64,000 nucleotides of DNA from Pseudomonas sp. P8_241 (lineage in GTDB: Bacteria; Pseudomonadota; Gammaproteobacteria; Pseudomonadales; Pseudomonadaceae): contig NZ_CP125377.1 of assembly GCF_034008315.1 (NCBI RefSeq), forward strand, positions 3,050,001 to 3,114,000, given 5' to 3'. How positions within the stretch are numbered: the stretch's first letter is position 1; each line of letters opens with the position of its first letter. Positions 33,321 to 58,215 of this stretch are shown in pieces. The notes under the pieces were generated by a model. It was not told where the DNA came from. It saw only the letters and a list, made by a program, of their open reading frames with translations, and did no database searches. The position numbers and the translations under genes were made by a program.

Positions 33321-34160
33321 ATGATCAAGAAATGCTTGTTCCCAGCAGCCGGTTACGGTACTCGCTTCCTGCCAGCGACTAAGGCCATGCCTAAAGAAAT
33401 GCTGCCGGTGGTGAACAAGCCACTGATCCAGTACGGCGTTGAAGAGGCCCTGGATGCGGGCTTGACCGAAATCTCCATCGTCACCGGTCGTGGCAAGCGC
33501 GCCCTGGAAGACCATTTCGACATCAGCTATGAACTGGAAAACCAGATCAAGGGCACCGACAAGGAAAAATACCTGGTCGGCATTCGCAAGCTGCTCGACG
33601 AGTGCTCGTTCTCCTACACCCGTCAGACCGAAATGAAAGGCCTGGGCCATGCGATCCTGACCGGTCGTCCGCTGATCGGCGACGAACCGTTCGCCGTGGT
33701 GCTCGCGGACGACCTGTGCGTCAACCTCGACGGTGACGGCGTGCTGACCCAGATGGTCAAGCTGTACAAGCAGTTCCGCTGCTCGATCGTGGCCATCCAG
33801 GAAGTCGACCCGCAAGAGACCAACAAGTACGGCGTGATCGCCGGCGAGATGATCCGCGACGACATCTACCGTGTCCACAGCATGGTTGAAAAGCCAAAGC
33901 CTGAAGACGCACCGTCGAACCTGGCCATCATCGGCCGCTACATCCTGACCCCGGACATCTTCGACCTGATCGAACAGACCGAGCCAGGCAAGGGCGGCGA
34001 AATCCAGATCACCGACGCGTTGATGAAACAGGCTCAGAACGGCTGCGTGATGGCCTACAAGTTCAAGGGCAAGCGTTTCGACTGCGGCGGCGCTGAAGGT
34101 TACATCGACGCGACCAATTTCTGCTTCGAGAACTTCTACAAGACAGGCAAGGCTTACTGA
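33321..34160 (+). CDS. galU: UTP-glucose-1-phosphate uridylyltransferase
   Basis: 279 residues. The nucleotidyltransferase motif FPAAGYGTRFLPATKAMPKE MLPV binds UTP and the catalytic lysine region VEKPKPEDAPSNLAIIGRYI is intact. It makes UDP-glucose for lipopolysaccharide core, exopolysaccharide and trehalose-type pathways. Full family length. Followed by a strong terminator. Confidence 0.97.
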   Translation: MIKKCLFPAAGYGTRFLPATKAMPKEMLPVVNKPLIQYGVEEALDAGLTEISIVTGRGKRALEDHFDISYELENQIKGTDKEKYLVGIRKLLDECSFSYTRQTEMKGLGHAILTGRPLIGDEPFAVVLADDLCVNLDGDGVLTQMVKLYKQFRCSIVAIQEVDPQETNKYGVIAGEMIRDDIYRVHSMVEKPKPEDAPSNLAIIGRYILTPDIFDLIEQTEPGKGGEIQITDALMKQAQNGCVMAYKFKGKRFDCGGAEGYIDATNFCFENFYKTGKAY

Positions 34161-34264: not shown

Positions 34265-34463
34265 GTGCGAGCCAAAAGGCAAAGCATTTCAGCCATCTGC
34301 ATTTTCAGATCTGTCCTACATCAAATCTTTTTCCGCTTTGTTAGCGTGCTCCGCAATTCGAACTTGATCAGGCTAGGTATGGCTTGGGCATTGTGTTTGT
34401 CTCCTTTCAGAGATTCAGGACAAACCTGGTTCGCGCCGGCCAACATTGCCGAAAAGGAGCTGT

Positions 34464-37400
34464 ATGAGCGCAGATAGACTGGCGATGGTCGATCGCCTGG
34501 CACAGGCCGACCGTGCCGCCAAGGCGATGCCGCATGAAGATATCAATAGCCCCTTGACCCCTTGCCCGGCCCACCAGCCGGTACTGTTCGTGGTGCCGGT
34601 GCGTTATGCCCTGGGGGAAGAAAACGCCACCCAGGCCTGCTGCCAGCCCGGGGTTGGCACGCAGAGTCATCCCCTGGCGACACGGCGCCTGCGGGCCGGT
34701 TTTCTCTACCTGTGGCAAAACAACGGTCCGTTGAAACGCTATGCGGTCGCGGCAGATGGTTTGCTCAGCGAGCAAGCGCTGGAGGACGAGACGACCCTCT
34801 TGCAGAAGGGTAACGTGGCGGGGCTGGCCCTGGAAAAAATCCACGACGCCTGGATGCTCTACAGCGAGTTCCCGCTGAACGCCGAGCACTGCCAGTCGCT
34901 GAGCGACAGCCATGCCCAGCGCGCAGCGCACATGCGCCACGTGGCCTTGCGCACGGTGGCCGACGAGCTGCAAGCGCCCCATTGCCCGCCGCTGGCGAGC
35001 GCCGATCAAGTGCTGGCCGAACTCATCCCGGACACCTATGCCCGGTCGATGAAAGCGGATCAAAAACAGGGCGGTGAAGACACCGGCGCGCTGGGCGCCG
35101 CGGCGATGAAAGCCCCGACCCCGGCCAACATCAAGGCCTACACCGACGCCATGCACCGCGCCCGTGAGCGCGAACGTATCCTCGCCGAGTACCCCGACGC
35201 CAGCGATCAGCCGCCGGGTCAGTGGAGTGCCGAGCCGTGGGACGGGCAGGGCACCCGGGACTGGCTGGACCGCGCCAGATCCCAGGCCGGGCCCTTGTTC
35301 AGCGTGTTCGCCTGCCTGGACGACGATCTGGGCGTGCTGCGGGACATCAACCATGAGCAAGAGTGGCTGGAGGCGCGTCACGAACAGTGGCTGGGCGACA
35401 ACAACCTGCGCCTGAGCATTGGGGGTTCATTCGCAGCCTGATCAGCGAAGACGGCGCCGAGCTGGCCGGCACGCTCAGCTACCGATACAAGGATCGCGAC
35501 ATCAGCCTCACGCCCGAGCAGGGCGAGGTGATGCTCAAGGCCCAGCACCGGCTGGATGAGGAACTCAAGGCCGAAACCCGTGCCCGCCAGTACGGCGGCC
35601 AGCCCACACAGGCCGAGGTGGCCGCCCGCGATGCGCGCATCGCCGCCATCGTCGCCCCGGTGCGGGCGTTTATTCCGGCGGACTTGTACACCGAAGCGGA
35701 ATTCGTCGTCCGCGAGTACCGCGCGCAAAAGCACGCCAACCTCAACAACCATTTCTTGAGTGATAAAGTCAGCGAGTACATCGACCTCAAGGCGATGAAC
35801 ACCTGGCTCGAAGAGACCGCGCCGGCGCACTACCAGCAGATCGAGCAGCGTCACACCGCGTTGTTCGCCGACCGCGGCCAGTACCTCAAACGCTCGCGCA
35901 GCGGCACCTGGTTTGTCGATTACGACGACCTGGAGACCCGCCAGTGGCTGACCGAACTCGCCACCGGCTGCCTGACCGCCCAATGCATCCGCGCCCAGGG
36001 GGCCGAACAGTACGCCGACTATGTGCGCGCGGCGGACGGTGGTGCGCTGACGCACCTGTTCAACGCCTGGACACCCACGATCGACGCCGCCGTCAATAAC
36101 GTCAGCCGCCTGGGCGAACTGATGGCGGCACTGGCCGACGACAACCTCAATGCCACGCACCTGGCGCTGGCGCCATTGAGCAAGCCGATCCTGCACGACA
36201 TCGCGGCCATGGCCCGTGACGTCGGCAGCGCGTGGAGCGTGCTGGTCAAGCGGCTCGCGGCGGCCTTGCTGGTGCTCAAAGGCGATAAAGCCTTCAGCAA
36301 TGCCTGGCTGGGCATTTTCGTCGCCGCGCGTCTGGGCAGCGATGCGCGCTTGCAGTTCGGCGTCGAAGGGAGCCGGCAGCTGTGGAAACTGCTGGGACAA
36401 CAGGCCGACGCGTTGGACGGCTGGGTGAAAACCACCGGCAAGGCCATTGGGGCCGGGCGGGTGGAGCGGATCGTCAACTCACCGGCGGTGGCCAACAGCG
36501 GTGGCGTGGTGCCAGTGGCGGCGTTGTTGTTGAACGTGCTGAATGCGCAGAACTATTTGAGCGAGGCTGGGGTGGTGGAGGGGATGGACAGTCGACGGAT
36601 GTATGACACGGTGTCGGCGACGTTGTATGCGGGGGCGGCGTTGGTGGCGGTGATTGATCATCAGGTGCGGAAGGGGTTGGGGATTAAGGAAGTTGGGAAG
36701 GGACTGACAATGGCCCCGACGTTGACTCTGTTTGGTGGGGTGATTGGCGGGTTGTCTGCAGGTGCCGCGTATCAGGAGTTTAGATCGCTACAAAAGCAAC
36801 TAGAAGATGCCCAGAGCCGAATCGATCCATGGCTGGACATGCGCCAGACTGTGGTTGGTGGACAAATCACGGCCTTTGGCGCCCAGGCATTGTTGGGGGC
36901 TACTTACACAATGAAAGCCTTGGCGGGATCTATAACTGTCGAAACCGCCATCTTGCGCTATACGCTGTACCTGGGGCCGTTGAACTGGCTGATTGCCGTG
37001 CTGGGCGTGCTGCACTTGATCACTTGGGTCTTCGAGCAAACCCCGCTGCAAAACTTCCTCAACTTCTGTTGCTGGTCAAAAGCCCGGGCGCTCGACCTGG
37101 CCCCCATCGCAGCCAAAGCCCAGGAGGAAGAACTCGATAGGCTGTACTTCATCCTGTATGCACCTCGGGTCAGCATGCAAAGCAGCACGGAATCGACCCT
37201 GGGTAGTGGCGCGTCGGGCCTTGCCTTCGTCAGCGCCATCGAGGCCCTGACCATCGATTTACCGGGGGCCGAGCCCGGCAGTGCCTACCTGGAGCTGAGC
37301 ATGATCGGTGATCCCGTGGATACCCAGGCTTACCGCCATCTGATCAAGAACAGCCCCAACCAACATTTCAAGCCGCCGCGTCCCTGGCGGGACATGACGC

Positions 37401-37735
37401 CGCACTGGCTGGTCAGCAGCGTTTGCGAGTGGATACCGTTCAAGGACGGTCAGGGTCTGCGCTTGAGTGGTCCCTTCAAGTCGCTACGCGATGTCTTGGG
37501 CACAACCCCCAGCAGCGTTTCCCTGCGGTTGCGCTATCGCACGCCACTCCTCGCCATGCTCGGCGCCCAGACCTTCATCGGTGGCGAAGCAGGGCTGGCC
37601 TTTACCTTGAGCGACAGCACCGGCGTGATCGCGCTGCGGAACGACCCGACGCCTGAGCTGGATCGTGTTCCGCGCTACCGGCTCGGCGAAGATCATCCCG
37701 GTGCCTCTTACCTGCAACCCAAGGACAAACCATGA
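34464..37735 (+). pseudogene. VasX-like type VI secretion effector (BTH_I2691 family), frameshifted
   Basis: ATG at 34464 with AAGGAG 5 bases upstream. The N-terminal part has the VasX N-region pattern (CPAHQPVLFVVPVRYALGE then LRAGFLYLWQNNGPLKRYAV). At 35421-35425 a tract of five G ends the first frame after LRLSIGG; with six G it continues FIRSLISEDGAELAGTLSYR to a total of exactly 1090 residues. The C-terminal half carries several hydrophobic segments (VVPVAALLLNVLNAQNYL, TLYAGAALVAVIDH, LTLFGGVIGGLSAGAAY, YLGPLNWLIAVLGVLHLITW), as in the pore-forming VasX group that depolarises target membranes. Its last codons overlap the first DUF6708 gene. No vgrG or PAAR gene is adjacent, so it is an orphan. 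Phase variation or sequencing error are alternatives to true decay. Confidence 0.8.
35421..35425 (+). repeat. Five-G tract at the effector frameshift
   Basis: One more G restores a single open frame of 1091 codons including the stop. Confidence 0.8.
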
Positions 37736-38676
37736 GCACGCCCGAGGCAGGCACCACAAAAAAACGGCTGATGTCGCGCAATGATTATTTGGCGCCGCTG
37801 CCCATCCCTACGGGAGAAAAGCCGTGTGATGTGCTCAACATCATTTGGCGCAAGAATGAGGTGTTTCTGGATGTCGGCAACTACAGCATTGGTTCAGCGG
37901 TGATGGTGCTCTGGCCGATGGTGGTACTGTTTGCATTTATGGGTTATCTGTTCAGAAATGATCACGATGAAATGCACCTTTTTGCGGTGATGACCACCAT
38001 CATTATTGGTGTGCCTACCGTTCTCTTGATCCAGGCCCTATTCCGCGAAGTACCGCTCCCTGTGCGCTTCAACCGCCAACGCCGCGAAGTCTGCGTCCCA
38101 CGCGATAACGGCGAATACTGGCTCGTCCCCTGGGAAAGCGTGACCGCCGCCGCCACTCAGCACTCTTCCGTCAGCCAGGCTGGCCGCAACACGATGGGCT
38201 TGCTGGTCATCGGCTTCGAGAATCCCGATCCCCACGCCGAGGAAGACAACAAGCACTTTTCGCTGGGCTTCAACTGCGGCGGCGGCACCACGGCGATGGC
38301 GTTGTGGGAGTGCATGCGCAGCTACATGGAGATCGGGCCGGACGTTGTCGAGGATCAGACAGCACGTTTCGACCGCTCGAAAGGGATTTGGGCAACCTAT
38401 CTGGATGATCTGGTAAAGGCCGCGAAGCTCAGGGGTTGGCTGGTAACTGCCTTGTGGGAGGGATTCTGCGGAATTTTTATCTTCAATACCTTACTGATCG
38501 ACGTGCTGGAACGTTGGAAGCTAAACCCGCCGCCGGATCTGACCCACCCCGATATCATCGAATGGTCCAAACCACTCCCCCCGGAACAATGGGCCAAACG
38601 CTCCCCGGAACTGGAAGCCGCCATCGCCAAACGCGAGGCTGAACTCGCTACCCAGCAAGAGCGAGAGCTGGCGTGA
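37732..38676 (+). CDS. DUF6708-type membrane protein 1 (inferred effector immunity)
   Basis: 314 residues, first copy after the effector, overlapping its stop (ATGA). Common N-terminus MSTPEAGTTKKRL and RNDYLAPLPIPTGEKPCDVL. Variable segment A forms two membrane helices (VLWPMVVLFAFMGYLFRN, FAVMTTIIIGVPTVLLIQAL). A near-invariant core follows (RFNRQRREVCVPRDNGEYWL, GLLVIGFENPDPHAEEDNKH F). Variable segment B contains a third helix (LVTALWEGFCGIFIFNTLLI). The C-terminus has DIIEWSKPLPPEQWAK. Family identity is from recalled pattern. An inner-membrane protein beside a membrane-acting toxin fits an immunity role. Confidence 0.7.
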   Translation: MSTPEAGTTKKRLMSRNDYLAPLPIPTGEKPCDVLNIIWRKNEVFLDVGNYSIGSAVMVLWPMVVLFAFMGYLFRNDHDEMHLFAVMTTIIIGVPTVLLIQALFREVPLPVRFNRQRREVCVPRDNGEYWLVPWESVTAAATQHSSVSQAGRNTMGLLVIGFENPDPHAEEDNKHFSLGFNCGGGTTAMALWECMRSYMEIGPDVVEDQTARFDRSKGIWATYLDDLVKAAKLRGWLVTALWEGFCGIFIFNTLLIDVLERWKLNPPPDLTHPDIIEWSKPLPPEQWAKRSPELEAAIAKREAELATQQERELA

Positions 38677-38879
38677 CGACAAATCCTCAAGGCCGGTTGC
38701 CCAGCAGCGTTTCCCTGCGGTTGCGCTATCGCACGCCACTCCTCGCCATGCTTGGCGCCCCGACCTTCATCGGCGGCGAAGCAGGGCTGGCCTTTACCCT
38801 GAACGATCGTGTCCCGCGCTACCGGCTCGGCGAAGATCATCCCGGCGCCTCTTACCTGCAACCCAGGGACAAACCATGA
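38673..38879 (+). CDS. Effector C-terminal duplicate, unit 2 (short form)
   Basis: 68 codons from GTG, the start overlapping the stop of immunity gene 1 (GTGA) and the stop overlapping the next ATG. First residues MTTNPQGRLP come from the immunity 3' flank; the rest is the effector C-terminus from SSVSLRLRYR on. It lacks 16 codons (STGVIALRNDPTPEL region). Probably a duplication by-product whose translation carries ribosomes into the next gene. Confidence 0.5.
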   Translation: MTTNPQGRLPSSVSLRLRYRTPLLAMLGAPTFIGGEAGLAFTLNDRVPRYRLGEDHPGASYLQPRDKP

Positions 38880-39821
38880 GCACGCCCGAGGCAGGCACCA
38901 CAAAACAACGGCTGTTGTCGCGCAATGATTATTTGGCGCCGCTGCCCATCCCTACGGGAGAAAAGCCGTGTGATGTGCTCAACATCATCTGGCGCAAGAA
39001 CGAGGTGTTTCTGGATGTCGGCAACTACAGCATTGGTTCGGCGGTAATGGTGCTATGGCCGATGGTGATGCTGTTTTAATCATGGCGTACTTCGAAATCA
39101 CGAAATTCGCCTCTGGAGATTTTATGGCAGGATAGCTGGCTCAATCATCACTGGCATCCCAGCGCTGTTTCTGATCCAAGGCCTCTTCCGCGAAGTCCCC
39201 CTACCCATACGCTTCAACCGCCAACGCCGCGAAGTCTGTGTCCCACGCGATAACGGCGAATACTGGCTCGTCCCCTGGGAAAGCGTGACCGCCGCCGCCA
39301 CTCAGCACTCTTCCGTCAGCCAGGCTGGCCGCAACACGATGGGCTTGCTGGTCATCGGCTTCGAGAATCCCGATCCCCACGCCGAGGAAGACAACAAGCA
39401 CTTTTCGCAGGGCTTCCACTGCGGCGGCGGCACCACGGCGATGGCGTTGTGGGAGTGCATGCGCAGCTACATGGAGATCGGGCCGGACGTTGTCGAGGAT
39501 CAGACAGCACGTTTCGACCGCTCGAAAGGGATTTGGGCAACCTATCTGGATGATCTGGTAAAGGCCGCGAAGCTCAGGGGTTGGCTGGTAACTGCCTTGT
39601 GGGAGGGATTCTGCGGAATTTTTATCTTCAATACCTTACTGATCGACGTGCTGGAACGTTGGAAGCTAAACCCGCCGCCGGACCTGATCCACCCCGATAT
39701 CATCGAATGGTCCAAACCACTCCCCCCGGAACAATGGGCCAAACGCTCCCCGAAACTCGAAGCCGCCATCGCCAACCGCGAGGCTGAACTCGCTAGCCAG
39801 CAAGAGCGAGAGCCGGCTTGA
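38876..39821 (+). pseudogene. DUF6708-type membrane protein 2, disrupted
   Basis: The common N-terminus is read from 38876 but stops after VMVLWPMVMLF at 39079, where copy 5 has one more T (…CTGTTTTTAATC). Further small insertions and deletions follow up to about 39145 relative to copy 5. The core resumes in frame with the terminal stop at 39821, and the B segment (PDVVEDQTARFDRSKGIWAT) is identical to that of copy 1. So the A segment is copy-5-like and damaged, the B segment copy-1-like. Confidence 0.8.
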
Positions 39822-40024
39822 CGATGAATCCTCAAGGCCGGTTGCCCGGCAGCGTTTCCCTGCGGTTGCGCTATCGCACGCCACTCCTCGCCATGCTCGG
39901 CGCCCAGACCTTCATCGGCGGCGAAGCAGGGCTGGCCTTTACCCTGAACGATCGTGTCCCGCGCTACCGGCTCGGCGAAGATCATCCCGGTGCCTCTTAT
40001 CTGCAACCCAGGGACAAACCATGA
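39818..40024 (+). CDS. Effector C-terminal duplicate, unit 3 (short form)
   Basis: 68 codons from TTG overlapping the stop before it (TTGA); begins MTMNPQGRLPGSVSLRLRYR and ends YLQPRDKP. Same 16-codon deletion as unit 2. Coupled to the next gene by ATGA. Confidence 0.5.
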   Translation: MTMNPQGRLPGSVSLRLRYRTPLLAMLGAQTFIGGEAGLAFTLNDRVPRYRLGEDHPGASYLQPRDKP

Positions 40025-40944
40025 GCACGCCCGAGGCAGGCACCACAAAAAAACGGCTGTTGTCGCGCAACGATTATTTGGCGCCGCTGCCCATCCCTAC
40101 GGGAGAAAAGTCGTGTGATGTGCTCAACATCATTTGGCGCAAGAACGAGGTGTTTCTGGATGTCGGCAACTACAGCATCGGTTCGGCGGTGATGACCATT
40201 TGGCCGGGGGTGATGTTGTTTATTTTAATGAACTACATCAATCCCGACCCCCTGATCTGGGGAGGAGGGTTGATCATCATGGGTATCCCTATCTGTTTTG
40301 TAATCCAAGGCCTCTTCCGCGAAGTCCCCCTACCCATACGCTTCAACCGCCAACGCCGCGAAGTCTGCGTCCCACGCGATAACGGCGAATACTGGCTCGT
40401 CCCCTGGGAAAGCGTGACCGCCGCCGCCACTCAGCACTCTTCCGTCAGCCAGGCTGGCCGCAACACGATGGGCTTGCTGGTCATCGGCTTCGAGAATCCG
40501 GATCCCCATGCAGAGGAAGACAACAAGCACTTTTCGCTGGGCTTCCACTGCGGCGGCGGCACCACGGCCATGGCGTTGTGGGAGTGCATGCGCAGCTACA
40601 TGGAGATCGGGCCGGCAGCAGCGCCGGAGGCGGCTGCGCTCAACTCCGGAGCGAACCTGCGCTACTACATCGATTACATGAGCGACAAGGCCAAAGAGCG
40701 CGGTTGGATTTTGACGCTGTTGTGGGAGGGCGTGTTCGGCGTATTCATCTTCAATGCTCCTCTCGCCACCTATCTGCAAAGGAAAAAGCTGTACCCACCG
40801 CCCGACCTGCTCTATCCCGACATCATCGAATGGTCCAAACCACTCCCCCCGGAACAATGGGCCAAACCCTCCCCGAAACTCGAAGCCGCCATCGCCAAAC
40901 GCGAGGCTGAACTCGCTACCCAGCAAGAGCGAGAGCCGGCGTGA
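40021..40944 (+). CDS. DUF6708-type membrane protein 3 (inferred immunity)
   Basis: 307 residues, intact. Shares the N-terminus and core of the other copies. Segment A is its own (MTIWPGVMLFILMNYINPD, GGGLIIMGIPICFVIQGLF). Segment B (PAAAPEAAALNSGANLRYYI, GWILTLLWEGVFGVFIFNAP) is shared with copy 6. Three predicted membrane helices as in copy 1. Confidence 0.7.
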   Translation: MSTPEAGTTKKRLLSRNDYLAPLPIPTGEKSCDVLNIIWRKNEVFLDVGNYSIGSAVMTIWPGVMLFILMNYINPDPLIWGGGLIIMGIPICFVIQGLFREVPLPIRFNRQRREVCVPRDNGEYWLVPWESVTAAATQHSSVSQAGRNTMGLLVIGFENPDPHAEEDNKHFSLGFHCGGGTTAMALWECMRSYMEIGPAAAPEAAALNSGANLRYYIDYMSDKAKERGWILTLLWEGVFGVFIFNAPLATYLQRKKLYPPPDLLYPDIIEWSKPLPPEQWAKPSPKLEAAIAKREAELATQQEREPA

Positions 40945-41195
40945 CGACGAATCCTCAAGGCCGGTTGCCCAGCAGCGTTTCCCTGCGGTTGCGCTATCGC
41001 ACGCCACTCCTCGCCATGCTCGGCGCCCCGACCTTCATCGGCGGCGAAGCAGGGCTGGCCTTTACCTTGAGCGACAGCACCGGCGTGATCGCGCTGCGGA
41101 ACGACCCGACACCTGAGCTGGATCGTGTCCCGCGTTACCGGCTGGGCGAAGATCATCCCGGTGCCTCTTACCTGCAACCCAAGGACAAACCATGA
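40941..41195 (+). CDS. Effector C-terminal duplicate, unit 4 (long form)
   Basis: 84 codons from GTG overlapping the preceding stop. Retains SDSTGVIALRNDPTPEL as in the full effector and ends YLQPKDKP. Coupled to the next gene by ATGA. Confidence 0.5.
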   Translation: MTTNPQGRLPSSVSLRLRYRTPLLAMLGAPTFIGGEAGLAFTLSDSTGVIALRNDPTPELDRVPRYRLGEDHPGASYLQPKDKP

Positions 41196-42121
41196 GCACG
41201 CCCGAGGCAGGCACCACAAAAAAACGGCTGTTGTCGCGCAATGATTATTTGGCGCCGCTGCCCATCCCTACGGGAGAAAAGTCGTGTGATGTGCTCAACA
41301 TCATCTGGCGCAAGAACGAGGTGTTTCTCGACATCGGCAATTACAGCATTGGTTCAGCGGTGATGGTGCTCTGGCCGATGGTGGTACTGTTTGCATTTAT
41401 GGGTTATCTGTTCAGAAATGATCACGATGAAATGCACCTTTTTGCGGTGATGACCACCATCATTATTGGTGTGCCTACCGTTCTCTTGATCCAGGCCCTA
41501 TTCCGCGAAGTACCGCTCCCTGTGCGCTTCAACCGCCAACGCCGCGAAGTCTGTGTCCCACGCGATAACGGCGAATACTGGCTCGTCCCCTGGGAAAGCG
41601 TGACCGCCGCCGCCACTCAGCACTCTTCCGTCAGCCAGGCTGGCCGCAACACGATGGGCTTGCTGGTCATCGGCTTCGAGAATCCGGATCCCCATGCAGA
41701 GGAAGACAACAAGCACTTTTCGCTGGGCTTCAACTGCGGCGGCGGCACCACGGCGATGGCGTTGTGGGAGTGCATGCGCAGCTACATGGAAGTAGGGTCG
41801 GAGGCTGTACCTGATAGCCGAGTAGGAATTGCACCCTACGAAGAAACGCAAATCGGTTCGATCATTTCTGACCTGCGCAAGGGGGACCTCATAGGTGTTT
41901 TATGGGGGATATTCTGCATTACGATTTTGGGGACGTACCTGGCGGAGAAAGTTCAGAATTTGAAGCTTTCACATCCGCCTGATCTGCCTTATCCCGACAT
42001 CATCGAATGGTCCAAACCACTCCCCCCGGAACAATGGGCCAAACGCTCCCCGGAACTGGAAGCCGCCATCGCCAAACGCGAGGCTGAACTCGCTACCCAG
42101 CAAGAGCGAGAGCTGGCGTGA
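41192..42121 (+). CDS. DUF6708-type membrane protein 4 (inferred immunity)
   Basis: 309 residues, intact. Segment A is identical to copy 1 (VLFAFMGYLFRNDHDEMHLF) including the downstream PLPVRF variant. Segment B is unique: VGSEAVPDSRVGIAPYEETQ and LIGVLWGIFCITILGTYLAE. A clear hybrid of a shared front and a private back. Confidence 0.7.
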   Translation: MSTPEAGTTKKRLLSRNDYLAPLPIPTGEKSCDVLNIIWRKNEVFLDIGNYSIGSAVMVLWPMVVLFAFMGYLFRNDHDEMHLFAVMTTIIIGVPTVLLIQALFREVPLPVRFNRQRREVCVPRDNGEYWLVPWESVTAAATQHSSVSQAGRNTMGLLVIGFENPDPHAEEDNKHFSLGFNCGGGTTAMALWECMRSYMEVGSEAVPDSRVGIAPYEETQIGSIISDLRKGDLIGVLWGIFCITILGTYLAEKVQNLKLSHPPDLPYPDIIEWSKPLPPEQWAKRSPELEAAIAKREAELATQQERELA

Positions 42122-42324
42122 CGACGAATCCTCAAGGCCGGTTGTCCAACAGCGTTTCCCTGCGGTTGCGCTATCGCACGCCACTCCTCGCCATGCTCGG
42201 CGTCCCGACCTTCATCGGCGGCGAAGCAGGGCTGGCCTTTACCCTGAACGATCGTGTCCCGCGCTACCGGCTCGGCGAGGATCATCCCGGCGCCTCTTAC
42301 CTGCAACCCAGGGACAAACCATGA
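42118..42324 (+). CDS. Effector C-terminal duplicate, unit 5 (short form)
   Basis: 68 codons from GTG; begins MTTNPQGRLSNSVSLRLRYR and ends YLQPRDKP, with the same 16-codon deletion as units 2 and 3. Overlaps neighbours at both ends. Confidence 0.5.
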   Translation: MTTNPQGRLSNSVSLRLRYRTPLLAMLGVPTFIGGEAGLAFTLNDRVPRYRLGEDHPGASYLQPRDKP

Positions 42325-43292
42325 GCACGCCCGAGGCAGGCACCACAAAAAAACGGCTGTTGTCGCGCAATGATTATTTGGCGCCGCTGCCCATCCCTAC
42401 CGGAGAAAAGCCGTGTGATGTGCTCAACATCATCTGGCGCAAGAATGAGGTGTTTATCGATATCGGCAACTACAGCATTGGTTCGGCGGTAATGGTGCTA
42501 TGGCCGATGGTGATGCTGTTTTTAATCATGGCGTACTTCACACGAAATATCGCCTCTGGAGATTTTAGCCAAGACATATTGATAGCTGGCTCAATCATCA
42601 CTGGCATCCCAGCGCTGTTTCTGATCCAAGGCCTCTTCCGCGAAGTCCCCCTACCCATACGCTTCAACCGCCAACGCCGCGAAGTCTGTGTCCCACGCGA
42701 TAACGGCGAATACTGGCTCGTCCCCTGGGAAAGCGTGACCGCCGCCGCCACACAGCACTCTTCCGTCAGCCAGGCTGGCCGCAACACGATGGGCTTGCTG
42801 GTCATCGGCTTCGAGAATCCGGATCCCCATGCAGAGGAAGACAACAAGCACTTTTCGCTGGGCTTCCACTGCGGCGGCGGCACCACGGCGATGGCGTTGT
42901 GGGAGTGCATGCGCAGCTACATGGAGATCGGGCTGCAAGTTCTCCCGTTAACCAATGATTTTGAAGGGGAGCGAGAGAGACTGCGTGGAAGGAATGTTTT
43001 CTGGGGTGTTTTCTGTGACTACTTGAATGGCATCAGACAACATCTGGCAGCCTGGGAAATTGACAAGGCATTGTGGCTTATCATCGGCGCCGTACTGTTC
43101 GGGGCACCGCTGGCAATGATGCTGCAAGCGTGGAAATTGTCACCGCCACCCGCGTTGACCCACCCCGATATCATCGAATGGTCCAAACCACTCCCCCCGG
43201 AACAATCGGCCAAACGCTCCCCGGAACTGGAAGCCGCCATCGCCAAACGCGAGGCTGAGCTCGCTACCCAGCAAGAGCGAGAGCCGGCTTGA
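42321..43292 (+). CDS. DUF6708-type membrane protein 5 (inferred immunity)
   Basis: 323 residues, the longest copy. Segment A: VMLFLIMAYFTRNIASGDFS, QDILIAGSIITGIPALFLIQ. Segment B is unique and longer: QVLPLTNDFEGERERLRGRN, LWLIIGAVLFGAPLAMMLQA. Core and termini as in the other copies, except PPEQSAK for PPEQWAK. Confidence 0.7.
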   Translation: MSTPEAGTTKKRLLSRNDYLAPLPIPTGEKPCDVLNIIWRKNEVFIDIGNYSIGSAVMVLWPMVMLFLIMAYFTRNIASGDFSQDILIAGSIITGIPALFLIQGLFREVPLPIRFNRQRREVCVPRDNGEYWLVPWESVTAAATQHSSVSQAGRNTMGLLVIGFENPDPHAEEDNKHFSLGFHCGGGTTAMALWECMRSYMEIGLQVLPLTNDFEGERERLRGRNVFWGVFCDYLNGIRQHLAAWEIDKALWLIIGAVLFGAPLAMMLQAWKLSPPPALTHPDIIEWSKPLPPEQSAKRSPELEAAIAKREAELATQQEREPA

Positions 43293-43543
43293 CGACGAAT
43301 CCTCAAGGCCGGTTGTCCAGCAGCGTTTCCCTGCGGTTGCGCTATCGCACGCCACTCCTCGCCATGCTTGGTGCCCAGACCTTCATCGGTGGCGAAGCAG
43401 GGCTGGCCTTTACCTTGAGCGACAGCACCGGCGTGATCGCGCTGCGGAACGACCCGACGCCTGAGCTGGATCGTGTCCCGCGATACCGGCTCGGCGAAGA
43501 TCATCCCGGCGCCTCTTACCTGCAACCCAAGGACAAACCATGA
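43289..43543 (+). CDS. Effector C-terminal duplicate, unit 6 (long form)
   Basis: 84 codons from TTG overlapping the preceding stop; retains SDSTGVIALRNDPTPEL and ends YLQPKDKP. Coupled to the next gene by ATGA. Confidence 0.5.
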   Translation: MTTNPQGRLSSSVSLRLRYRTPLLAMLGAQTFIGGEAGLAFTLSDSTGVIALRNDPTPELDRVPRYRLGEDHPGASYLQPKDKP

Positions 43544-44479
43544 GCACGCCCGAGGCAGGCACCACAAAAACGGCTGTTGTCGCGCAACGATTATTTGGCG
43601 CCGCTGCCCATCCCTACGGGAGAAAAGCCGTGTGATGTGCTCAACATCATTTGGCGCAAGAATGAGGTGTTTTTGGATGTCGGCAACTACAGCATTGGTT
43701 CGGCGGTAATGGTGCTATGGCCGATGGTGATGTTGTTTTTAGCCATGTCTTTTTTTACTCGAAATCTCAATTCTGACTTCAGTCAAGAGATTTTGATATT
43801 GGGCGCAGTTATTATGGCCATTCCTATCTGTTTGGTAATCCAAGGCCTCTTCCGCGAAGTCCCCTTACCCATACGCTTCAACTGCCAACGCCGCGAAGTC
43901 TGCGTCCCACGCGATAACGGCGAATACTGGCTCGTCCCCTGGGAAAGCGTGACCGCCGCCGCCACTCAGCACTCTTCCGTCAGCCAGGCTGGCCGCAACA
44001 CGATGGGCTTGCTGGTCATCGGCTTCGAGAATCCCGATCCCCACGCCGAGGAAGACAACAAGCACTTTTCGCTGGGCTTCCACTGCGGCGGCGGCACCAC
44101 GGCGATGGCGTTGTGGGAGTGCATGCGCAGCTACATGGAGATCGGGCCGGCAGCAGCGCCGGAGGCGGCTGCGCTCAACTCGGGAGCGAACCTGCGCTAC
44201 TACATCGATTACATGAGCGACAAGGCCAAAGAGCGCGGTTGGATTTTGACGCTGTTGTGGGAGGGCGTGTTCGGCGTATTCATCTTCAATGCTCCTCTCG
44301 CCACCTATCTGCAAAGGAAAAAGCTGTACCCACCGCCTGACCTGCTCTATCCCGACATCATCGAATGGTCCAAACCACTCCCCCCGGAACAATGGGCCAA
44401 ACCCTCCCCGAAACTCGAAGCCGCCATCGCCAAACGCGAGGCTGAGCTCGCTACCCAGCAAGAGCGAGAGCCGGCTTGA
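43540..44479 (+). pseudogene. DUF6708-type membrane protein 6, frame shifted in a poly-A tract
   Basis: From the usual ATG (43540) the frame fails after MSTPEAGTTKTAVVAQRLFG, because the A7 tract of copies 1, 3, 4 and 5 is A5 here. Restoring two A gives 313 residues. A TTG at 43577 would still allow a protein lacking the first 13 residues (SRNDYLAPLPIPTGEKP…), which keeps all membrane helices, so function may survive. Segment A is close to copy 5 in part (VMVLWPMVMLFLAMSFFTRN) and segment B equals copy 3. Confidence 0.65.
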
Positions 44480-44491
44480 CGACGAATCCTC

Positions 44492-44569
44492 AAGGCCGCT
44501 CGTTCTGCGGCGCGCATCAGTGGATTCCGCTCAGGGCAGGCCAAGGCTTGGCTCTGAGCGGCCTTTTTA
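44492..44569 (+). terminator. Terminator closing the effector/immunity array
   Basis: AAGGCCGCTC (44492-44501) pairs perfectly with GAGCGGCCTT (44556-44565) and T residues follow. An inner hairpin GCCAA/TTGGC lies at 44540-44552. Confidence 0.75.
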
Positions 44570-44682
44570 ATACGTTGCCGAGTGTGTGCACATGACGCTG
44601 AGGCGTGAGGGGCTATCGGGTGCCGCCTTGTGGCGGCAAGTGGGTCGAGTGATATGCTGTCGGCCTGCCGAGGAGATTGAAA

Positions 44683-46041
44683 ATGGCCTACGATTTTGAC
44701 CTTTATGTGATTGGTGCCGGTTCCGGCGGTGTGCGGGCGGCGCGGTTTGCGGCCGGGTTTGGCGCGAAAGTGGCGGTGGCCGAGAGCCGTTATTTGGGCG
44801 GGACCTGTGTGAACGTCGGCTGTGTGCCGAAGAAGCTGCTGGTGTATGGCGCGCATTTCGCCGAAGACTTCGAGCAGGCGTCTGGTTTTGGCTGGACGCT
44901 GGATGAAACGCAGTTCGATTGGGCGACGCTTATCGCCAACAAGGACCGCGAGATCAATCGCCTGAACGGCATTTATCGCAATCTGCTGGTCAATAGCGGT
45001 GTGTTGTTGCATGAGGGACACGCGAAAATCATCGATCCGCATCAAGTCGAGGTGAATGGCGAGCGTTTTACCGCTAAAAATATCCTGATCGCCACGGGCG
45101 GCTGGCCGCAGATCCCGGAGATTCCGGGGCATGAACACGCGATCAGTTCCAATCAGGCGTTCTTCCTCAAGGAGCTGCCAAAGCGAGTTCTTGTGGTTGG
45201 CGGTGGTTACATCGCTGTCGAGTTTGCCGGGATTTTCCATGGCTTGGGCGCGCAGACCACGCTGTTGTATCGTGGTGAGTTGTTCCTGCGCGGTTTCGAC
45301 GGTTCCGTACGCAAGCATTTGCAGGAAGAGCTGACCAAGCGTGGAATGGACCTGCAATTCAACGCGGACATCGAGCGCATCGACAAGCAGGTCGATGGCA
45401 GCCTGAAAGTTACGCTCAAGGATGGACGTCAATTGGAAGCCGATTGTGTGTTCTATGCGACCGGTCGGCGTCCGATGCTCGACAACCTTGGCTTGGAAAA
45501 CACCAGGGTCAAACTCGACAAGAAGGGCTTTGTTGAGGTCGATGATTTGTATCAGACCGCCGAGCCGTCGATCCTGGCCTTGGGCGATGTCATCGGTCGT
45601 GTGCAGCTGACACCGGTGGCGCTGGCTGAAGGCATGGCCGTTGCGCGCCGCCTGTTCAAGCCTGAGCAATATCGTCCGGTGGATTACAAGATGATCCCGA
45701 CGGCGGTGTTCAGCTTGCCGAATATCGGCACCGTCGGTTTGACCGAAGAGGAGGCTCGCGAAGCTGGCCATGAGGTGCAGACTTTCGAGAGCCGCTTCCG
45801 CCCGATGAAGCTGACCTTGACCGAATGTCAGGAGCGCACCTTGATGAAACTGGTGGTGGATGCCAAAACCGACAAGGTGCTGGGTTGCCACATGGTCGGC
45901 CCGGAGGCCGGGGAGATCGTTCAGGGCCTGGCGATTGCCTTGAAGGCGGGCGCGACCAAGCGCGACTTCGACGAAACCATCGGCGTGCACCCGACGGCCG
46001 CCGAAGAGTTCGTCACCATGCGTACGCCGGTCACCGGTTAA
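44683..46041 (+). CDS. gor: Glutathione-disulfide reductase
   Basis: 452 residues from the ATG at 44683 (GAGGAG upstream). FAD motif [16 protein letters not shown], redox-active disulfide [18 protein letters not shown] motif [20 protein letters not shown], and the catalytic HPTAAEE at the C-terminus. It reduces glutathione disulfide with NADPH. Its stop overlaps the stop of the convergent KfrA-like gene. Confidence 0.97.
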
Positions 46042-55864: not shown

Positions 55865-55895
55865 AAAAAACCGGTCCTTTGTGACCGGTTTTTTT
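55865..55895 (+). terminator. Rho-independent terminator after hpd
   Basis: AAAAAACCGGTC/GACCGGTTTTTTT stem and T tract; symmetrical enough to work in both directions. Confidence 0.9.
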
Positions 55896-55902
55896 GAAGA
55901 TC

Positions 55903-55980
55903 AAAAGATCGCAGCCTGCGGCAGCTCCTACAGAGAAATGGTGTTGATTCTGTAGGAGCTGCCGCAGGCTGCGATCTTTT
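55903..55980. repeat. REP doublet
   Basis: AAAAGATCGCAGCCTGCGGC and the inverted GCTGCCGCAGGCTGCGATCT around a short spacer; lies directly before the rarD stop. Confidence 0.9.
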
Positions 55981-55983
55981 GCT

Positions 55984-58126: not shown

Positions 58127-58205
58127 AAAAGATCGCAGCCTGCGGCAGCTCCTACACAGAAATGACATTCACATTGTAGGAGCTGCCGCAGGCTGCGATC
58201 TTTTG
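58127..58205. repeat. REP doublet
   Basis: AAAAGATCGCAGCCTGCGGC and inverted partner, same class as 55903-55980. Confidence 0.9.
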
Positions 58206-58215
58206 ATTTTCGCTT

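What the first reader, a model, noticed from the sequence alone, without database searches (positions are those of the whole stretch)
37511..44497. Six-unit tandem array of effector tail plus DUF6708 membrane gene
After a VasX-like effector, the segment [effector last 60-76 codons + membrane protein gene + 23-base 3' flank] is repeated six times head to tail, all on one strand and ended by one terminator. An immunity array this long behind a membrane-acting type VI effector suggests protection against many variant toxins, or dosage by unequal crossing over.
Basis: partly seen in the sequence, partly recalled or inferred. Interest (0 to 1): 0.9.

Follow-up and report, generated by a model that had tools for sequence, protein, structure and literature searches.

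The report
Mix-and-match immunity genes against bacterial toxins
A row of six related immunity genes behind an antibacterial toxin gene turns out to be a set of mix-and-match proteins, built from two interchangeable segments that appear to correspond to two short sites in the toxin, so one bacterium may hold protection against several toxin variants.

Summary
The six-unit array is real (37514-44497; units 81-94% identical). It sits behind a VasX_N/BTH_I2691-like type VI effector. Copy 2 is broken, copy 6 has lost its in-frame start, and the effector is split into two frames.

The units differ by intragenic shuffling, not by plain drift. A 92-99% identical backbone carries two cassettes: V1 (TM1-TM2 hairpin) and V2 (TM3 segment). 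Copies 1 and 4 share V1 (100%) but not V2 (47%); copies 1 and 2 share V2 (100%) but not V1 (53%). Across Pseudomonas there are five common V1 and four common V2 types, and all 20 combinations occur among 95 proteins.

The effector has two short matching sites. A hairpin loop (E2) tracks V2 of the first immunity gene, and the next helix (E1) tracks V1. Twelve later loci supported this: E1 to V1 11/12, E2 to V2 8.5/12, each 0/2000 permutations; the crossed pairings fail.

Best reading: immunity is a two-part code, and arrays store recombined specificities. In this window copy 4, not copy 1, fits the effector. Arrays of this family are known; I found no report of the two-cassette code in my searches. 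Nothing here is tested at the bench.

The parts
34464..35441 (+). N-terminal piece of the effector (VasX_N domain), from the likely ATG (ORF listed from TTG 34446); its frame ends here
   Evidence: PF20249 75.7 bits, cut-off 27; NF041559 BTH_I2691 55.7 bits, below its cut-off of 150. DNA alignment with a second locus of the genome starts at 34460
35363..37735 (+). C-terminal piece of the effector (pore-type region and tail) in another frame
   Evidence: 790 aa ORF; NF041559 32 bits, below cut-off
36683..36712 (+). E2: loop between two hydrophobic segments of the effector (IKEVGKGLTM); class II; site that tracks V2
   Evidence: replaced as a block relative to the paralogue (differences crowd into about 36683-36727)
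36755..36793 (+). E1: helix after the hairpin (SAGAAYQEFRSLQ); class a; site that tracks V1
37732..38676 (+). Immunity copy 1, 314 aa, type V1=a / V2=III (V1 37906-38040, V2 38332-38547)
38673..38879 (+). Relic effector tail 2 (GTG overlaps the stop of copy 1; its stop overlaps the ATG of copy 2)
38876..39821 (+). Immunity copy 2, broken within V1; V2=III, same DNA as in copy 1 over the segment compared
39818..40024 (+). Relic effector tail 3 (TTG start)
40021..40944 (+). Immunity copy 3, 307 aa, type e / IV (V1 40195-40314, V2 40606-40815)
40941..41195 (+). Relic effector tail 4 (GTG start, long form)
41192..42121 (+). Immunity copy 4, 309 aa, type a / II: best match for this locus's effector (V1 41366-41500, V2 41792-41992)
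42118..42324 (+). Relic effector tail 5 (GTG start)
42321..43292 (+). Immunity copy 5, 323 aa, type b / I (V1 42495-42635, V2 42927-43163)
43289..43543 (+). Relic effector tail 6 (TTG start, long form)
43577..44479 (+). Immunity copy 6, open only from an internal TTG, type b / IV (V1 43712-43849, V2 44141-44350)
44527..44567 (+). Likely intrinsic terminator of the array
   Evidence: stem followed by CCTTTTT; not listed by the consensus scan

Best explanation
The array is a set of orphan and near-orphan immunity genes for one family of pore-forming type VI effectors (BTH_I2691/VasX-like). Specificity is a two-part code. Each immunity protein has a conserved backbone and two exchangeable cassettes: V1, the first transmembrane hairpin, and V2, the segment around the third transmembrane helix. 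V1 corresponds to site E1 of the toxin and V2 to site E2, a hairpin loop; E1 and E2 lie about 20 residues apart on either side of a weakly hydrophobic helix. Homologous recombination in the conserved stretches shuffles V1 and V2 among copies and loci, and swaps the short E1 and E2 tracts in toxin genes. New effector-immunity pairs enter upstream and leave the older immunity gene behind with a stub of the old effector's 3' end, so arrays accumulate. The cell is thereby protected against several toxin variants. Shown here: the two-cassette mosaic, all 20 combinations, the specific E1-V1 and E2-V2 associations, and relic tails without E sites. Inferred: physical contact, neutralisation, and the order of events.
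For: Mosaic at DNA level inside the window: copies 1/4 V1 100%, V2 47%; copies 1/2 V1 53%, V2 100%; copies 3/6 V1 48%, V2 99%; N-terminal, core and C-terminal backbone segments 92-99%. Backbone follows the locus and cassettes do not: mean identity within versus between loci, core 0.96/0.85, V1 0.49/0.46, V2 0.53/0.50 (67 proteins). All 20 of 20 combinations of five V1 and four V2 types among 95 typed of 103 proteins (42 loci); V1-V2 mutual information not above shuffles (191 of 2000 reach it). Effector windows scored against the type of the first immunity gene, 37 effectors: V2 peaks at E2 (z 12.3, median of 143 windows 0.0), V1 at E1 (z 10.0, median 2.4); the peaks stay without divergent or odd loci. 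Twelve later loci: E1 to V1 11/12 (shuffle mean 2.5), E2 to V2 8.5/12 (mean 2.7), each 0/2000; crossed E2 to V1 3.7/12 (336/2000) and E1 to V2 2/12 (1551/2000) are at chance; the rest of the effector's C-terminal part gives V1 2/12 and V2 5/12. Not linkage for V2: in the effector downstream of E1 no window passes z 2.2 for V2. Copy 1 is the best match in 20 of 25 multi-type loci (two ties counted half), 9.9 expected, 0 of 20000 random draws reach it. E2 tract swapped in otherwise similar DNA in 31 of 666 effector pairs, E1 in 9. 21 relic tails in 15 of 43 loci begin at residues 560-765 and none contains E1 or E2.
Against: No bench data and no structure of the complex. In this window the rule fails at copy 1: the effector (a/II) fits copy 4, and the paralogue's effector (a/III) fits window copy 1 and no copy of its own exactly. 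Other odd loci: L120 (fits copies 4 and 6), L027, L030 and L070. Without exclusions leave-one-out success is 30.5/37 (E2 to V2) and 28.6/37 (E1 to V1), so about a fifth miss. Misses in the 12 later loci: V2 of L105 (nearest is the odd L030), L120 and L122, a tie for L104; V1 of L120. V2=II goes with two unlike E2 loops (L017 type, L070 type), V2=III mostly with KDRFFIRSSA but in L025/L028 with VKEFTFRLSA, and E1 class a rests on one locus (L026) besides this genome. The 12 loci are not fully independent: L117 comes from the genome of L029, L116 and L119 share cassettes with earlier loci, and the exact limits of E1 and E2 were written after these loci had been printed. V1 has a raised background from relatedness (downstream windows up to z 5.0, 3.3 without divergent loci). 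Both effector copies of this genome are frame-split, so in this strain the array may be memory only. The effector fold never ran, and the immunity model is poor (pLDDT 54).
Confidence: 0.7

Rival explanations
1. Sequential displacement only, as in Vibrio cholerae: whole foreign effector-immunity modules were added one after another, leaving old immunity genes; no modular recognition code.
For: Relic effector tails between copies, tails of different length in different genomes; cognate-like gene usually first (20 of 25); published model (PMC5361080, passages).
Against: Does not explain cassettes shared at 99-100% between copies whose other cassette differs, or 20 of 20 combinations, or two separate E-V associations.
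Confidence: 0.15
2. Plain tandem duplication for dosage, by unequal crossing over; the differences are drift.
For: Copies in one array share a nearly identical backbone and unit borders.
Against: The large differences are confined to V1, V2 and a 48-base length difference in the tail; cassette types are shared with other species and track the toxin sites.
Confidence: 0.05
3. Only one cassette is recognised by the toxin; the other follows something else, such as membrane partners or resistance to a different agent.
For: V1 shows a relatedness background (median z 2.4); V2=II pairs with two unlike loops. The second DUF6708 array of this genome varies mainly in its V1 region.
Against: Both associations hold in the 12 later loci, each specific for its own site.
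Confidence: 0.15
4. In this strain the locus is a decaying relic: an ectopic copy of the vgrG-linked locus with a dead toxin.
For: Effector split in two frames, copy 2 broken, copy 6 without its start; no vgrG or DUF4123 seen beside it; paralogue at G000:C1 2.15 Mb also split.
Against: Four full-length immunity frames remain. Splits in several genes of this genome, it seems the paralogue's vgrG too, may be indel errors of the assembly; I cannot tell.
Confidence: 0.35

Closest known systems
Tke5-Tki5 of Pseudomonas putida KT2440 (PMC12909789; abstract, outline and passages read)
   Same: BTH_I2691-family pore-forming T6SS effector with an N-terminal MIX domain, a helical pore region and a beta-rich C-terminus; vgrG-tap-effector-immunity order as in the paralogue L010; the immunity protein acts on the helical region.
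   Different: One immunity gene named there; no array, no cassettes and no specificity sites in the passages I read. No sequence match of our effector piece to any solved chain at E 1.
Immunity gene arrays of Vibrio cholerae T6SS clusters (PMC5361080; passages read)
   Same: Orphan immunity genes stacked 3' of an effector-immunity pair, with 3' pieces of old effectors.
   Different: There whole immunity genes of different types are stacked, and the authors argue against duplication because copies do not cluster by genome. Here the backbone does cluster by genome while two inner cassettes do not.
Stenotrophomonas rhizophila Tse3 with tsi3 array (PMC13340143; passages read)
   Same: BTH_I2691 effector followed by Tsi3a (DUF6708) and 12 homologous genes in 14 kb: the same kind of array.
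   Different: No cassette structure or recognition code in the passages read; the genome was not analysed here.
IdsD-IdsE of Proteus mirabilis (PMC6682164; passages read; binding of matched variable regions is recalled)
   Same: T6SS-transferred membrane-type protein and partner whose matching variable regions define self.
   Different: Unrelated families (recalled); no two-cassette combinatorics known to me.
Orphan Rhs-CT/CdiA-CT modules (mentioned in PMC5361080, otherwise recalled)
   Same: Displaced toxin 3' ends kept with their immunity genes.
   Different: There the orphan pieces can hold the toxin domain (recalled); here no relic tail contains the E sites.

Membership tests
VasX_N / BTH_I2691 T6SS effectors | VasX_N domain at the N-terminus | tested here: met
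   75.7 bits, cut-off 27, in the N-terminal piece
VasX_N / BTH_I2691 T6SS effectors | NF041559 over the family cut-off (150 bits) | tested here: inconclusive
   55.7 and 32 bits for the two pieces scanned apart; the frame split lowers the score
VasX_N / BTH_I2691 T6SS effectors | vgrG and DUF4123 adaptor next to the gene | tested here: not met
   no DUF4123 match near the window locus, upstream neighbour is a nucleotidyl-transferase gene; both genes present at the paralogue L010. Of 4 VasX_N genes in the genome, the other three have a DUF4123 match beside them. vgrG itself was not searched for genome-wide
VasX_N / BTH_I2691 T6SS effectors | pore-forming toxicity | not testable with these tools
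   hydrophobic segments only
DUF6708 (PF20455) | Pfam match over 27 bits | tested here: inconclusive
   five window copies 19.3-24.1 bits, E 3.6e-5 to 1.1e-3, copy 2 remainder no match; four of five copies of the genome's second array are just over the cut-off, 27.4-28 bits. Called DUF6708-like
T6SS immunity proteins | gene directly 3' of the effector | tested here: met
   in the 37 effector loci used, which were chosen for having a typed downstream immunity gene
T6SS immunity proteins | protects against the cognate effector | not testable with these tools
   reported for Tki5 (PMC12909789), not for these proteins
Displacement-type immunity arrays (V. cholerae model) | 3' pieces of old effectors between immunity genes | tested here: met
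   five in the window; 21 tails in 15 of 43 loci
Displacement-type immunity arrays (V. cholerae model) | array copies do not cluster by genome | tested here: inconclusive
   backbone does cluster, cassettes do not
Displacement-type immunity arrays (V. cholerae model) | cognate gene first, orphans behind | tested here: met
   20 of 25 loci, ties counted half, 9.9 expected; the window itself is an exception

The most novel reading that the evidence does not exclude
Immunity to a whole family of pore-forming toxins is written in a two-letter combinatorial code: two cassettes of a membrane immunity protein each read one of two nearby sites at either end of a toxin transmembrane helix, and recombination of five by four cassette types gives at least 20 specificities, which arrays store as a library.
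Probability: 0.6. Interest if true: 0.87.

Novelty: new variant of a known kind. Interest (0 to 1): 0.77.

Why it matters
How immunity proteins tell one pore-forming toxin from its close variants is poorly known (my inference from the papers seen). Here sequence alone points to two short toxin sites and two immunity cassettes, with a lookup table that can be tested directly in laboratory strains. If right, it shows how bacteria make new toxin and immunity specificities by swapping segments of about 10 to 80 residues instead of whole genes, and it lets one predict from a genome which toxin variants a strain can withstand. It would also explain why such long arrays of near-identical genes are kept.

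Tried and rejected
Assembly collapse or duplication artefact: unlikely, copies differ in cassettes; relatives assembled in one contig also have long arrays (G015 eight copies; G152 seven long copies and G323 six). Dosage: rejected as main cause (above). A large hypervariable effector domain: not found; conservation along the effector is fairly even in 20-residue blocks. Other effector sites: for V2 the only windows above z 4 outside E2 lie at the ragged left edge of the 430-residue cut, where the gap pattern depends on the 5-residue insertion of V2=I effectors (z up to 7.0), an edge effect; for V1 a general background remains. The N-terminal part was scanned only column by column, with 22 effectors. 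Solved relatives by sequence: none for the effector piece; two weak hits for the immunity profile (E 0.029 and 0.62). Immunity model: pLDDT 54.4, TM hairpin at 53-103 and a beta-rich core; Foldseek gave no match at E 0.001 or better, so no fold claim. DUF6708 over 274 genomes of the class: 3 with a match at 1e-8; that threshold also missed this genome, so it says little. Second genus draw repeated the first; the family draw added one new genome with the effector. Papers: nine searches; no report of two-cassette or combinatorial immunity for this family in the listings and passages they gave; lists were capped, most subscription journals are not held, and supplements were not available.

Cassette types of later loci were given by nearest neighbour without an identity floor (lowest used about 0.67). 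In one search six odd loci were not used as references, which favours the rule; searches have no such exclusion. In one search, two of 23 listed tails are effectors cut by a contig end and are not counted. E1 and E2 were found on the first loci; their exact columns were fixed with an anchor in L018, after the 12 later loci had been printed.
Full report
What is there. The window lies in a 6.39 Mb single-contig genome whose named matches are Pseudomonas. Between a nucleotidyl-transferase gene of GalU type (33321-34160) and a pyridine-nucleotide oxidoreductase gene (44677-46041) sit an effector gene and six head-to-tail units (37514-44497). The effector has a VasX_N domain and sub-threshold BTH_I2691 matches in both pieces; its frame changes within 35357-35441. 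Each unit is the effector's 3' end, a DUF6708-like gene and a short flank. Each of the five relic tails can open with a GTG or TTG that overlaps the stop of the previous immunity gene and ends in an ATGA overlap with the next, so the row could be translated as one coupled chain (inference).

Second copy. The same genome has a paralogue at 2.15 Mb (L010) with vgrG, a DUF4123 adaptor, an effector and two units. The DNA match with the window starts four bases before the effector's ATG, so the window locus looks like an ectopic copy without vgrG and adaptor. The paralogue's effector is split too, at another place. A third VasX_N effector (4.57 Mb) has its own array of five distant DUF6708 genes. 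One VipB gene indicates that a T6SS is present.

Mosaic immunity proteins. Aligning the six units shows backbone segments of 92-99% identity and two segments that lie at 30-76% or at 99-100%, independently. V1 is the first transmembrane hairpin (two hydrophobic segments at about 52-104); V2 holds the third. I collected relatives from one genome-contig scan (29 loci) and whole-genome searches; the effector's C-terminal part is found in 33 of 398 genomes of the genus at 1e-60. V1 falls into five common types (a-e; script labels 3, 5, 6, 7, 8) and V2 into four (I-IV; 1, 3, 4, 5); three rare V1 types and one rare V2 type also occur. In the first 67 complete proteins 19 of the 20 common combinations occur; with the later loci, 20 of 20 among 95 of 103 proteins. 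V1 and V2 are not detectably linked (191 of 2000 shuffles reach the observed value). Backbones cluster by locus, cassettes do not. Copies within one array are about as varied as random draws (5 repeats, 7.0 expected). Window types: copy 1 a/III, copy 2 broken/III, copy 3 e/IV, copy 4 a/II, copy 5 b/I, copy 6 b/IV; paralogue b/IV and a/I.

A matching pair of sites in the toxin. The effector is fairly evenly conserved, but columns associated with the type of the first immunity gene cluster at two places: about residues 443-452 of the second piece (E2, a loop between hydrophobic segments) for V2, and about 467-479 (E1, on the following helix) for V1. Usual forms: VKEMSxxLPxGRxGS with I, IKEFGRGRSI-like loops with II (KDRFHIRSTA in two loci), KDRFFIRSSA with III, KDRFxFFGSA with IV; SFVAAGAEF with c, SAYAAL with d, SxxAAxNEF/Y with e, SAGAAFAEF with b, SAGAAYQEF with a. 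Over 37 effectors a sliding window gives one main peak for V2 (z 12.3 at E2) and one for V1 (z 10.0 at E1), with medians over all windows of 0.0 and 2.4. The peaks stay after removing divergent and odd loci. Outside E2 the only V2 windows above z 4 are at the ragged left edge of the cut, and only in the reduced sets.

Test on later loci. Twelve loci came after the sites were found, though the exact column limits were fixed after these loci had been seen, and some are related to earlier ones (L117 shares a genome with L029). Nearest-neighbour assignment gives V1 from E1 in 11 of 12 (miss: L120) and V2 from E2 in 8.5 of 12 (misses: L105, L120, L122; tie: L104), each beyond all 2000 label shuffles; crossed assignments are at chance (3.7 and 2 of 12); the rest of the effector's C-terminal part gives V1 2 and V2 5 of 12. 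Leave-one-out over all 37: 28.6 (V1) and 30.5 (V2), against 10 and 14 from the rest of that part. Downstream of E1 no window passes z 2.2 for V2, so shared descent of a linked block does not explain the E2-V2 match. For V1 a relatedness background remains there (up to 5.0; 3.3 without three divergent loci), well under the E1 peak.

How sites and cassettes move. Window and paralogue effectors are near-identical around E2, yet the loop is replaced as a block of about 45 bases. In 31 of 666 effector pairs E2 differs within conserved surroundings, and in 9 E1 does. On the immunity side whole cassettes are exchanged within an array. Relic tails begin at many different effector positions (residues 560-765; 21 tails in 15 of 43 loci) and never include the E sites, as expected if each new pair brought its own E sites and displaced the old effector. 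That is the published displacement model (PMC5361080, passages) plus intragenic shuffling.

Cognate first, orphans behind, and the exceptions. Copy 1 fits its effector best in 20 of 25 multi-type loci (19 outright, two ties at half; 9.9 expected; 0 of 20000 draws). The misses are L070, L120, L122 (by 0.01) and the window, whose effector is E1=a, E2=II and fits copy 4. The paralogue's copy 1 scores best of its two, but its effector reads a/III, which is window copy 1 and none of its own copies. L120 fits copies 4 and 6. L027, L030 (immunity gene with an in-frame stop) and L070 have no clear match. Both effectors of this genome are split, which may have relaxed the match; this is inference, and the splits may be assembly errors.

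Mechanism proposed. BTH_I2691 toxins are thought to insert helices from the periplasmic side, and Tki5 acts on the helical region of Tke5 (PMC12909789, passages). E2 and E1 flank one weakly hydrophobic helix, about a membrane's thickness apart (inference from 20 residues). A membrane immunity protein whose hairpin V1 and third-helix segment V2 meet the two ends of that helix would need both to match. Contact, stoichiometry and side of the membrane are not shown; the immunity model was too poor and the effector fold could not be run.

Known and new. Arrays of DUF6708 genes behind BTH_I2691 effectors are in print (S. rhizophila, PMC13340143, passages), as are displacement arrays (V. cholerae). 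What I did not find in nine literature searches is the two-cassette structure and the two-site correspondence. I file it as a new variant of a known kind.

Noticed in passing
L009 1-20000 (G000:C1:4555000-4574999, - strand): A second array in the same genome: five distant DUF6708 genes in units of about 1272 bases behind another VasX_N effector; mostly 96-100% identical, but 45-79% in the V1 region (alignment 300-500; copies 4 and 5 are identical there), with a smaller drop at 800-1000 (68-78%) in pairs with copies 4 and 5. Copy 3 is frame-broken.
   Followed up: partly
L010 2799-4882: The vgrG of the paralogue locus appears in two overlapping frames, like both effector copies: decay or indel errors of the assembly (only the second piece was scanned).
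   Followed up: no
window 34460: The DNA match with the paralogue begins four bases before the effector's likely start codon, so the window locus looks like an ectopic copy inserted between housekeeping-type genes.
   Followed up: partly
window 38673-43543: Relic effector tails keep open frames with starts overlapping the upstream stop and stops overlapping the next ATG; they may serve as translational bridges.
   Followed up: no
window 55895-55981 and 58175-58211: Short repeats of 37-40 bases also present near the paralogue (L010 1086-1130), possibly REP elements.
   Followed up: no
L070 7444-14828: Array of eight immunity genes without relic tails in a one-contig relative; its effector's E1 (SWIAAAEEHR) resembles no other here and may be a further class.
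   Followed up: no
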